Origin: Saprospiraceae bacterium
Lineage (GTDB): Bacteria; Bacteroidota; Bacteroidia; Chitinophagales; Saprospiraceae
Assembly: GCA_022841745.1 (NCBI GenBank)
Contig: JALHQW010000063.1
Span: forward strand, 1-32,750
Reading direction: 5' to 3'
Length of the DNA stretch: 32,750 nt
The position numbers and the translations under genes are program-made. A model generated the notes under the pieces. That model was not told where the DNA came from, did no database searches, and saw only the letters and a list, made by a program, of their open reading frames with translations. Each line of letters starts with the position of its first letter. Position 1 is the stretch's first letter. Below are positions 3,201 to 4,208 of this stretch, piece by piece.

Positions 3201-3252
3201 CAGTGCCCGGAGCGGGACTCGAACCCGCACTGCCGCATGGCAACAGGATTTT

Positions 3253-3973
3253 CTTACCTGCTACGGCTTTCGCCGCTCACACCGAGAAGTGTGATTTGTG
3301 GTCTGGACTTTCTCTTGACCGTATCCATTTGGACTTAGGCCCCTCCCATTAAGTCTCTACACCTTCCCTGCTTCAAGGGCTTGGCTCGGGATTGCCAATT
3401 CAAAACATTGAATAAGGTTTCCCCGAATTTGAGAGGCTATACGCTGACGGTTTCCCATCAGGCACTCAAATTTTTCTGTTCTTTGAACGAAAGGTTTCCG
3501 TTTGGCTATGGCAATTTGGACAAAGAAGCTCTAAGTTCGAAATGTGTTGATTGGTTCGGTTACCATCTTTATGATGTAACTCTAACGAAAGTACTTTTCC
3601 TCTCCATGAAGAAATCCCACAAACTTCACATTCCAGCTTCTTAATCCCTTCTTTGATAAGTCTGTTTTTTAGTTTGAACGATTGATAGTGAGGATGTAGC
3701 CCCTCATGGATTATTTCCTCTAAAGGAATTTTAGGGGCAATTTTAGCTAACCCTCTACCCGATTGATTTGGCTTATAGCAGCCAAGGGGCAGGGCACGTT
3801 TTTTAAACGAATTAAAATGCAACCCAAGTTTCGTAGCAGCTTCTGCCATAGTTTTTGCAGTTTCGCATGCCTCGATGAATTCAACATCACTATGTCTTTT
3901 GTTCAAACGCCAATTAACCTTTTTCATTGAAGTAAATCGAACAGCCAAAGGATTTCAAAGAACAATCAGAACT
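3253..3973 (-). ncRNA. Group I intron (IC3-like) in the tRNA-Leu anticodon loop
   Basis: The 721-nt intron follows the 5' exon ending in U and itself ends in G (complement of 3253), as group I introns do. Core elements read on the minus strand: TTCGGGGAAACC (P4 5' side), GGCAATCCCGAGCCAAG (P4/P6 region), a CCCT..AGGG hairpin, GTGTAGAGACTTAATGGG and AAGAGAAAGTCC. The last two give P7 by AGACTT/AAGTCC pairing (3351-3356 with 3305-3310). P3 pairs TAGCCTCTC with GGGAGGGGCCTA. GAAA tetraloops close CTGATGG/CCGTCAG (P2-like) and CGGC/GCCG (P9-like). P1 pairs exon ACUU with intron GAGU, including the required U-G. The endonuclease gene fills the P1 loop. The resemblance to the Anabaena tRNA-Leu intron is from memory. 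Confidence 0.92.
3466..3927 (-). CDS. HNH homing endonuclease encoded in the tRNA-Leu intron
   Basis: 153 residues from the ATG at 3927; an in-frame TTG at 3948 would add seven. Residues ~14-50 look like a helix-turn-helix DNA-binding segment. Residues ~68-96 form the PLEEI...LKNRLIKEG lead-in typical of phage-type HNH enzymes. The HNH/zinc module is C100-x2-C103, H118-H119-x-D121-x-N123, N131, then C136-x2-C139-H140, with the family ending CPNCHSQTETF. All key residues are present, so it appears active. The role would be to cut intron-less tRNA-Leu genes and drive intron spread. The last codons and stop overlap RNA needed for P1 of the intron. It is far larger than the intron core requires, which marks it as the mobile part. 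Confidence 0.9.
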   Translation of the reverse strand: MKKVNWRLNKRHSDVEFIEACETAKTMAEAATKLGLHFNSFKKRALPLGCYKPNQSGRGLAKIAPKIPLEEIIHEGLHPHYQSFKLKNRLIKEGIKKLECEVCGISSWRGKVLSLELHHKDGNRTNQHISNLELLCPNCHSQTETFRSKNRKI

Positions 3974-4135
3974 AAGTCCTGCGTGTCTACCATTCCACCA
4001 CCCGGGCTTGGATAGTGCAAAAATAAAAAAGTCTTCAAAAATTGACACCAGTTTTAACAACAACCAACTATGGGTTTGACTTCATTCTAGAAATAGAAAT
4101 CGCTTCCACTGGAATCAATATTTGAAGACTTTAAG

Positions 4136-4208
<73 letters not shown>

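What the first reader, a model, noticed from the sequence alone, without database searches (positions are those of the whole stretch)
3204..4007. tRNA-Leu(UAA) group I intron with an HNH homing endonuclease in a Bacteroidota-like genome
The sequence shows a complete split tRNA-Leu with exon junction CUU|AAAA, a recognisable group I core (P3, P4, P7, GNRA-capped hairpins, terminal G) and an intact HNH enzyme. Introns at this site are classic in cyanobacteria and plastids, where they are generally small and ORF-less. A large, endonuclease-bearing version in this lineage suggests either horizontal arrival or an active mobile intron in an essential tRNA.
Basis: partly seen in the sequence, partly recalled or inferred. 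Interest (0 to 1): 0.85.

Follow-up and report, generated by a model that had tools for sequence, protein, structure and literature searches.

The report
tRNA-leucine intron carrying an HNH endonuclease
In this bacterium the only gene found for one leucine tRNA is split by a self-splicing-type intron that carries a DNA-cutting enzyme, and relatives of that enzyme sit in or right beside the same kind of tRNA gene in many other bacteria and phages, which looks like a natural record of how introns become mobile.

Summary
Window 4007-3204 (minus strand) is a tRNA-Leu(UAA) gene split between positions 34 and 35 by a 721-nt group I intron with an intact 153-aa HNH ORF; no second Leu(UAA) gene was found. 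The core is supported by covariation. Four same-genus genomes have the gene uninterrupted. The larger result concerns the HNH. Its relatives, found by protein similarity alone, sit at tRNA genes. Of 80 genome loci, 36 lie in a group I intron (33 read as tRNA-Leu(UAA)), 4 just after an intron-bearing tRNA-Leu, 27 abut the 5' end of an intact tRNA (17 Leu(UAA)), 13 are other. Of 80 viral-contig loci, 36 are in introns, 5 beside an intron-bearing tRNA-Leu, 20 abut an intact tRNA, 19 are other. None of 30 other HNH loci from relatives holds a tRNA. In the intron the ORF occupies two different places (P1 loop or P6 loop). This matches the intermediates predicted by 'collaborative homing': a free-standing endonuclease aimed at a tRNA gene is captured, apparently more than once, by an intron at the same site. 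Splicing, cleavage and homing are inferred. The intron and enzyme classes are known; this family's four arrangements and phage tRNA-Leu introns were not found described in the open-licence papers searched.

The parts
3974..4007 (-). 5' exon of tRNA-Leu(UAA), ends ..GGACUU (position 34)
   Evidence: ARAGORN on joined exons and on the split gene; same 35-mer uninterrupted across the junction in L092-L095 of the same genus
3253..3973 (-). group I intron, 721 nt, terminal G at 3253
   Evidence: Rfam RF00028 61.5 bits; Leu-intron model R1 176.9 bits at 3475-3298 (the window is one of R1's 18 building sequences); covariation
3204..3252 (-). 3' exon of tRNA-Leu(UAA), begins AAAAUCC
3466..3927 (-). 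HNH endonuclease ORF, 153 aa from ATG, between the 5' splice site and the proposed internal guide sequence (P1 loop); its stop codon UGA (3468-3466) overlaps the guide
   Evidence: AlphaFold2 model mean pLDDT 88.6
3464..3470 (-). proposed internal guide sequence UUUGAGU: GAGU pairs ACUU of the 5' exon (P1, U.G at the splice site), UUU pairs AAA of the 3' exon (P10)
   Evidence: the same motif directly before the core in relatives. In the window another intron position was picked first with an equal 7 bp, so the assignment rests on conserved position
3342..3436 (-). P3 (3436-3431 with 3347-3342), enclosing P4 (3426-3422 with 3390-3386), P5 and P6 (3384-3362)
3306..3355 (-). P7 (3355-3351 with 3310-3306) around P8 (3339-3319)
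   Evidence: P7 paired in 18 of 18 sequences at all 5 pairs; one pair U-A in 12 and A-U in 6
4135..4208 (-). tRNA-Gly(GCC), neighbour of the split tRNA; also next to tRNA-Leu in the 6 same-genus loci checked

Best explanation
The intron splices itself out of the tRNA-Leu(UAA) precursor, leaving a normal tRNA, and encodes an HNH endonuclease that recognises the uninterrupted tRNA-Leu(UAA) gene and drives copying of the intron into intron-less genes. The HNH belongs to a family of tRNA-gene endonucleases that also exists free-standing, immediately beside intact tRNA-Leu genes in bacteria and phages. An ORF-less tRNA-Leu intron and such a neighbouring endonuclease met at the same site, and the ORF entered the intron's P1 loop here; in other lineages it entered the P6 loop. 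Shown by sequence: intron class, splice sites, intact ORF, purifying selection on relatives, the uninterrupted orthologous gene, and the family's residence at tRNA-Leu genes. Inferred: splicing, cleavage, homing, and the direction from free-standing to intron-borne.
For: Intron and ORF. Uninterrupted orthologous site: L094 of the same genus is 80% identical over 1,556 bases on one side and 77% over 887 on the other, tRNA unbroken. HNH loci: 80 kept of 103 in genomes, 80 kept of 184 in viral contigs, sorted by hand and recounted. Genomes: 36 in a group I intron, 4 just downstream of an intron-bearing tRNA-Leu, 27 abutting the 5' end of an intact co-directional tRNA (17 Leu(UAA)), 13 other. Viral: 36 in intron, 5 beside but outside an intron-bearing tRNA-Leu, 20 abutting (5 Leu(UAA), 12 other Leu), 9 within 260 bases after an intact tRNA, 10 other. 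Spliced in silico, 30 of 36 genome introns and 34 of 36 viral ones give tRNA-Leu(taa). Control: 0 of 30 loci of other Pfam HNH proteins from relatives hold a tRNA. In the own family all 5 HNH hits are at tRNA-Leu(UAA): 3 in introns, 2 decayed pieces just after an intron-less gene. Two positions of the ORF in the intron. dN/dS 0.04-0.16 in 7 of 7 pairs tried. The own HNH group of 10 falls with 15 viral HNHs in a starred set of 25 (95*). Phage L220 and Bacteroidales introns group together (99/97*) while uniting their HNHs is rejected (p 0.003).
Against: No splicing, cleavage or homing data. Rfam's own model reaches its threshold in only 10 of 20 genome loci tried and E 0.001 in 5 of 20 viral loci tried; the rest rest on R1, built from this family, plus splice sites. 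Two viral 'intron' loci (L215, L277) gave no tRNA on splicing. The introns whose HNHs form the own group are not rejected as one intron clade (p-AU 0.106), so co-inheritance there remains possible; HNH-bearing introns are clustered in the intron tree (0 of 500 shuffles as low), and that tree is poorly resolved around the window. Free-standing copies sit next to an intact tRNA that they must spare; how is unknown. Opposite-strand neighbours exist (L179, L203). Large phages carry tRNA arrays, so mere nearness there is weak. Direction of capture rests on a quick, unrooted tree.
Confidence: 0.7

Rival explanations
1. Old, vertically inherited intron with a passenger HNH: the intron has been in this family for a long time, splices, but no longer homes; the HNH is a leftover or has another role.
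For: At least 15 of 198 relatives have the Leu(UAA) intron; the AU test does not reject one intron clade for the own HNH group (p 0.106).
Against: The ORF is intact and keeps the conserved HNH and zinc residues; relatives show dN/dS 0.04-0.16; 1 of 14 same-genus genomes has the HNH and 4 have the uninterrupted gene; HNH-less introns lie among HNH-bearing ones in the intron tree.
Confidence: 0.2
2. The HNH family sits at tRNA genes for another reason (for example a defence or RNA-directed nuclease that keeps a tRNA gene as its partner), and residence in the intron is secondary.
For: Near-zero spacing to an intact tRNA in 27 of 80 genome loci; in the one free-standing genome checked, Nocardioides albidus, that tRNA is the only Leu(UAA) among 45 tRNA matches; weak matches of the HNH domain to ZorE and IscB.
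Against: Those matches cover only the HNH domain, far below cut-off. Residence in group I introns at two places is the usual pattern of homing endonucleases (established knowledge), and a relative beside tRNA-Leu in Escherichia phage BP32 is annotated F-TflIV.
Confidence: 0.08
3. Assembly or binning artefact: the split gene or the HNH was joined from another organism.
Against: Both flanks match L094 of the same genus in order and orientation (77-80% DNA identity), and one flank matches L092, L093 and L095 at 70-74%; the same architecture recurs in many separate genomes.
Confidence: 0.02

Closest known systems
[quoted passage not shown] recalled; titles seen in the reference list of PMC3984707)
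   Same: From memory: same tRNA, same anticodon-loop site, group I core, U.G at the 5' splice site, terminal G
   Different: Those are, from memory, mostly small and ORF-less; this one carries an HNH ORF in the P1 loop and lies in a Bacteroidota genome. Sequence kinship was not tested here
tRNA-Leu(UAA) and tRNA-Arg(UCU) introns of Beggiatoa and Thiomargarita (PMC4853749, passages read)
   Same: Putative group I introns in the same tRNA outside cyanobacteria
   Different: In the passages seen, their subtype was not determined and no endonuclease is mentioned for them
Intron-borne endonuclease of Synechocystis tRNA-fMet (I-Ssp6803I; recalled)
   Same: Homing endonuclease inside a tRNA anticodon-loop group I intron
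   Different: PD-(D/E)XK fold and another tRNA (recalled). In relatives an fMet intron ORF is of that fold (L010, PF11645, 2.1e-45); the window carries HNH
Free-standing phage HNH enzymes such as F-TflIV and the T4 mob/seg set (PMC2988022 passages read)
   Same: HNH gene ending a few bases before tRNA-Leu in Escherichia phage BP32; 55% identity to the window HNH over 80 aa
   Different: Not in an intron
Collaborative homing (PMC2988022 passage read; original papers recalled)
   Same: Endonuclease-lacking intron and free-standing endonuclease aimed at its site recombine into a mobile intron
   Different: There a proposed scenario in a review of phage elements; here the arrangements occur at a cellular tRNA gene in several phyla
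tmRNA group I introns of Saprospiraceae (PMC11915505 passages read)
   Same: Same host family, structured-RNA target
   Different: T-loop of tmRNA; the endonucleases reported in the passages are LAGLIDADG

Membership tests
Group I intron | P3-P8 catalytic core with P7 pseudoknot | tested here: met
   Rfam 61.5 bits; 97.0% of 662 cells paired, 28 of 37 pairs with changes on both sides
Group I intron | U before the 5' splice site pairing G in the guide; terminal G | tested here: met
   U3974, G3467, G3253; guide assigned by conserved position
Group I intron | Guanosine-initiated splicing | not testable with these tools
   needs RNA
tRNA-Leu(UAA) anticodon-loop intron | Insertion between 34 and 35 of tRNA-Leu(UAA) | tested here: met
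   ARAGORN, intron position 34-35
tRNA-Leu(UAA) anticodon-loop intron | Common descent with cyanobacterial introns | not tested
   no cyanobacterial sequence was fetched
HNH homing endonuclease | HNH active site and zinc cysteines | tested here: met
   C99, C102, E115, N130, C138, H139 invariant in 44 sequences (window included), H118 and C135 in at least 90%; roles of the residues recalled
HNH homing endonuclease | Named protein-family model above its cut-off | tested here: inconclusive
   Pfam HNH domain above its cut-off; no NCBIfam model reaches its cut-off
HNH homing endonuclease | Cuts the intron-less allele | not testable with these tools
   needs protein
Collaborative-homing system | Free-standing relative and ORF-less intron at the same target gene | tested here: met
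   17 free-standing genome HNH loci at intact Leu(UAA); ORF-less Leu(UAA) introns in relatives; both side by side in L131, L132, L147, L148, L204, L211
Collaborative-homing system | Free-standing and intron-borne enzymes cut the same site | not testable with these tools
   needs protein

The most novel reading that the evidence does not exclude
A family of HNH endonucleases spread over phages and bacteria is dedicated to tRNA genes, chiefly tRNA-Leu. It lives either as a free-standing gene at the very edge of the intact tRNA or inside the tRNA's group I intron, has entered the intron at least twice at different places, and moves introns between phage and bacterial tRNA-Leu genes. The tRNA-Leu intron, often cited (from memory) as ancient and immobile, would then be repeatedly remobilised.
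Probability: 0.5. Interest if true: 0.8.

Novelty: new variant of a known kind. Interest (0 to 1): 0.7.

Why it matters
How a splicing intron acquires a homing endonuclease is usually argued from single cases. Here one endonuclease family sits at one tRNA gene in the predicted stages: beside an intact tRNA, beside an intron-bearing tRNA, and inside the intron at two different positions. Each stage can be expressed and tested. It also bears on whether tRNA-Leu(UAA) introns are only inherited or also spread, and it points to phages as carriers: PMC3984707 (2014, passage read) states that all phage introns observed to that date were in protein-coding genes.

Tried and rejected
Idea that the free-standing HNH travels with its own spare tRNA-Leu: rejected for the one genome checked, Nocardioides albidus, where the HNH-adjacent gene is the only Leu(UAA) among 45 tRNA matches. 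Idea that the ARAGORN labels Leu(caa), Ser(cga), Ile(tat), Phe and so on in intron loci are real: fMet introns read GGGCU|..|CAUAACCC, and the others tested give Leu(taa) on splicing with CTT|..G|AAAATC. Sequence search of solved structures with the HNH alignment: 0 matches. Fold search: 0 matches with E up to 0.001; weak ones to EcoKMcrA, Cap5 and I-HmuI. Test that the own HNH group and its introns have different histories: not significant (p 0.106).

Bookkeeping. Row L027 of the first core alignment was on the wrong strand; it, L211 and L034 were left out of the rebuilt alignment. In one search the junctions picked for L153, L240 and L242 are spurious; L153 is not counted in the 30 of 36, and L240/L242 are read as Leu(taa) by ARAGORN. 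Of the 36 genome introns the 6 not counted are L152, L153, L156 (Lewinellaceae, intron apparently one base upstream, ARAGORN Leu(taa)), L181 and L184 (no tRNA resolved; loci end near the core) and L194 (tRNA-Thr by ARAGORN). The automatic classes were re-sorted by hand: seven viral loci with two core pieces moved to the P6-loop class; L204 and L278 moved out of the in-intron class; L131, L132, L147, L148, L211, L212, L252 placed beside intron-bearing tRNA; L127 placed in introns. L252 rests on a weak R1 match (38.0 bits) and ARAGORN. The HNH tree had 83 rows: the window, 52 of 80 genome loci and 30 of 80 viral loci; for the HNH test seven long or gappy rows were dropped (L145, L165, L170, L177, L179, L215, L224). 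Two of the seven dN/dS pairs (L190/L191, L183/L186) include ORF sequence that overlaps the intron core.

Papers: no report of a Bacteroidota tRNA intron with an HNH, or of a phage tRNA-Leu intron, was found in searches (open-licence PMC only). Passages were seen in PMC11915505, PMC4853749, PMC3984707, PMC12363816, PMC2988022, PMC11878797, PMC11835236, PMC3706429, PMC7344957 and PMC7824862; none was read whole. All others were seen only as listings.

Full report
WHAT IS THERE. On the minus strand of the window lies a split tRNA-Leu(UAA) gene: 5' exon 4007-3974, a 721-nt intron 3973-3253, 3' exon 3252-3204. The joined exons give an 83-nt tRNA-Leu(taa), and ARAGORN with introns allowed finds the split gene with the intron between positions 34 and 35; without introns it does not see it. 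Rfam's group I model scores 61.5 bits (cut-off 50) at 3508-3283, the only such match in the 8.43-Mb genome. A BLASTN search of the genome with the joined tRNA finds no unbroken Leu(UAA) copy. In the stretches around the 44 Rfam tRNA matches the leucine anticodons are CAA, CAG, UAG and GAG, besides the split UAA. So the intron sits in the only gene found for this tRNA.

CORE AND SPLICE SITES. Eighteen related cores, the window among them, were aligned. The named P2-P8 structure with P7 as a pseudoknot pairs in 97.0% of 662 cells; 28 of 37 pairs show changes on both sides (shuffled mean 19.5, 0 of 500 as high), and sliding the partners by 1-3 columns drops pairing to 32-52%. The motif UUUGAGU (3470-3464) can pair with both exons across the junction: GAGU with ACUU (P1, U.G at the splice site) and UUU with AAA (P10). 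In the window another intron position scored an equal 7 bp; the assignment rests on the motif's fixed place before the core in relatives.

THE ORF. The HNH ORF (ATG 3927 to stop 3466, 153 aa) lies between the 5' splice site and the guide, so in the P1 loop; its UGA stop is inside the guide. Pfam HNH and PHROG HNH families match; no NCBIfam model reaches its cut-off. Conserved HNH and zinc residues are invariant or nearly so in 44 sequences. The AlphaFold2 model (mean pLDDT 88.6) has a helical N-terminal part and a strand-strand-helix C-terminal part; solved structures give only weak matches. Seven of seven pairs of relatives tried, intron-borne and free-standing, give dN/dS 0.04-0.16.

EMPTY SITE. 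Four genomes of the same genus (L092-L095) carry an uninterrupted tRNA-Leu(UAA) with an identical 35-mer across the junction, next to tRNA-Gly(GCC) as here. For L094 the flanks match the window at 80% over 1,556 bases and 77% over 887, and the neighbouring proteins at 90% and 78%; for the other three only the tRNA-Gly side matches at length. Of 14 same-genus genomes (own included) 3 have a Leu(UAA) intron and 1 has the HNH. Of all 198 searched, at least 15 have a Leu(UAA) intron and 31 some group I match; the tool warns that its filters lose weak matches at this scale.

THE HNH FAMILY LIVES AT tRNA GENES. A protein-only scan of the genome collection found 103 relatives and kept 80; a scan of viral contigs found 184 and kept 80. 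I sorted them with ARAGORN, a group I model built here (R1) and in-silico splicing, by hand, and recounted. Genome loci: 36 in a group I intron, 4 just downstream of an intron-bearing tRNA-Leu (L131, L132, L147, L148), 27 free-standing with the stop codon -36 to +22 bases from the 5' end of an intact co-directional tRNA (17 Leu(UAA), 4 Ser(UGA), one each of Leu(CAA), Leu(UAG), Ser(GCU), Thr, Glu, Lys), 13 other or cut by contig ends. Viral loci: 36 in introns (29 distinct HNH stretches), 5 beside an intron-bearing tRNA-Leu, 20 with the stop -54 to +23 bases from the 5' end of an intact tRNA (17 of them tRNA-Leu, 5 UAA), 9 within 260 bases after an intact tRNA, 10 other. Thirty of 36 genome introns and 34 of 36 viral ones give tRNA-Leu(taa) on splicing (exceptions in Tried and rejected). 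Rfam's own model supports fewer: 10 of the 20 genome loci and 5 of the 20 viral loci given to it; the rest rely on R1 and the splice sites. R1 finds no core in the free-standing genome loci. Such abutting would be rare by chance: one checked genome has 45 tRNA matches in 4.5 Mb, so a 100-base target at each covers about 0.1%. As a control, 30 loci of other Pfam HNH proteins (30 of 56 matches found in 13 relatives) hold no tRNA. Opposite-strand neighbours at the stop side are few: L179 and L203, besides L278, where the intron-bearing tRNA-Leu is on the other strand.

TWO PLACES IN THE INTRON. In the window, other Bacteroidota and many viral contigs the ORF lies before the core. In Chloroflexota bins, a planctomycete, a Bacilli bin, UASB270 and viral contigs such as L217 the core is split in two R1 matches with the ORF between them; in L133, L135 and L217, whose sequences I read, the ORF lies between the 3' strand of P4 and GTGTAGAGAC, which is the P6 loop. 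The simplest reading is at least two separate captures.

WITHIN THE OWN FAMILY. An HNH search of 198 relatives gives 7 with a match. All 5 in the own family are at tRNA-Leu(UAA): the window, G019 and G043 inside the intron, and G027 and G074 as decayed pieces shortly after an intron-less gene. The other two (G180, G123; other families) have no Leu(UAA) gene in the locus.

TREES. In a quick, unrooted HNH tree of 83 rows the window falls in a starred group of 10 rows (8 intron, 2 downstream), which with 15 viral rows makes a starred set of 25 (95*). In the intron tree (55 rows) HNH-less introns lie among HNH-bearing ones: L040 (HNH inside) with L132 (HNH outside) and L033 (none), 96/91*; phage L220 with Bacteroidales introns, 99/97*. 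HNH-bearing introns are nevertheless clustered (0 of 500 shuffles as low) and the window's own place is unresolved. Uniting the HNHs of L220 and those Bacteroidales is rejected (p 0.003), so intron and enzyme have separate histories there; the same kind of test for the window's own group is not significant (p 0.106). Groups were named after seeing the trees.

PHAGES WITH NAMES. At E 1e-8 the window HNH has relatives in 183 of 50,697 phage records. Six were opened, and all six have a tRNA-Leu in the opened stretch. In Aeromonas phage avDM5 and Escherichia phage BP32 (product name F-TflIV) the HNH ends within 10 bases of tRNA-Leu(UAA). In Salmonella phage Munch it starts about 65 bases after tRNA-Leu(UAA); in Edwardsiella phage PEi26 it lies between tRNA-Leu and tRNA-Met; in the 642-kb record LR756502 it follows tRNA-Leu(UAA); in Salicola phage SCTP-2 it lies between two opposite-strand tRNA-Leu genes. 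Separately, the 735-kb record LR756501 has a tRNA-Leu(UAA) split by a 205-nt group I intron (R1 170.1 bits), and ARAGORN reads a split tRNA-Lys(UUU) around an R1 match of 120.6 bits in Gordonia phage Daredevil. PMC3984707 (2014, passage read) states that phage introns observed to then were all in protein-coding genes.

READING. The best-supported account is a homing intron whose endonuclease is a captured member of a tRNA-gene-targeting HNH family. PMC2988022 (passage read) describes collaborative homing in these terms: an endonuclease-lacking intron recombines with a free-standing endonuclease pre-adapted to its insertion site. The loci here show that series at one tRNA gene. Not shown: splicing, cleavage, transfer, and how a free-standing enzyme spares the intact tRNA beside it.

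NOVELTY. Group I introns in tRNA-Leu(UAA), HNH homing enzymes and free-standing HNH genes near phage tRNAs are known kinds. The HNH-bearing tRNA-Leu(UAA) intron in Bacteroidota, the four arrangements of one family, and phage tRNA-Leu introns were not found in the papers I could search, which leave out most subscription journals.

Noticed in passing
L295 1465-1763 (plasmid pCTX-M3); 1,266 of 72,556 plasmid records: An unannotated group I intron core (R1 166.3 bits, about 70% identical to the window core over 81% of the query). ARAGORN reads a split tRNA around it, labelled Stop(tta); by eye I read it as Leu(UAA). It lies beside a gene annotated AAA family ATPase and aac(3)-IId in this record. 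1,266 plasmid records, mostly Enterobacterales by name, match; only this one was opened.
   Followed up: partly
L010, L017, L021, L023 (relatives in the own family): Group I introns in tRNA-fMet(CAU) carry a different ORF; the one scanned (L010) is PDDEXK_5 (E 2.1e-45). ARAGORN labels some fMet introns Leu(caa) or Ser(cga).
   Followed up: partly
L009, L012, L014, L019, L032; L030, L037: Group I introns in tRNA-Gln(CUG), one (L019) with a different HNH ORF, and in tRNA-Arg(UCU), in the same family.
   Followed up: partly
L132 about 1340-1430; L291 about 1360-1430: Between tRNA-Leu and the HNH lies what looks by eye like a second, partial tRNA-Leu 3' half with a short hairpin insert.
   Followed up: no
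L220 236-482: A second group I intron match (Rfam 65.9 bits) on the same viral stretch, about 0.9 kb before the split tRNA-Leu.
   Followed up: no
   Followed up: no
L142, L144, L151, L164: Actinomycetota tRNA-Leu(UAA) genes next to the HNH are short (78-79 bases by ARAGORN) with an odd-looking D arm; in L142's genome it is the only Leu(UAA) found.
   Followed up: partly
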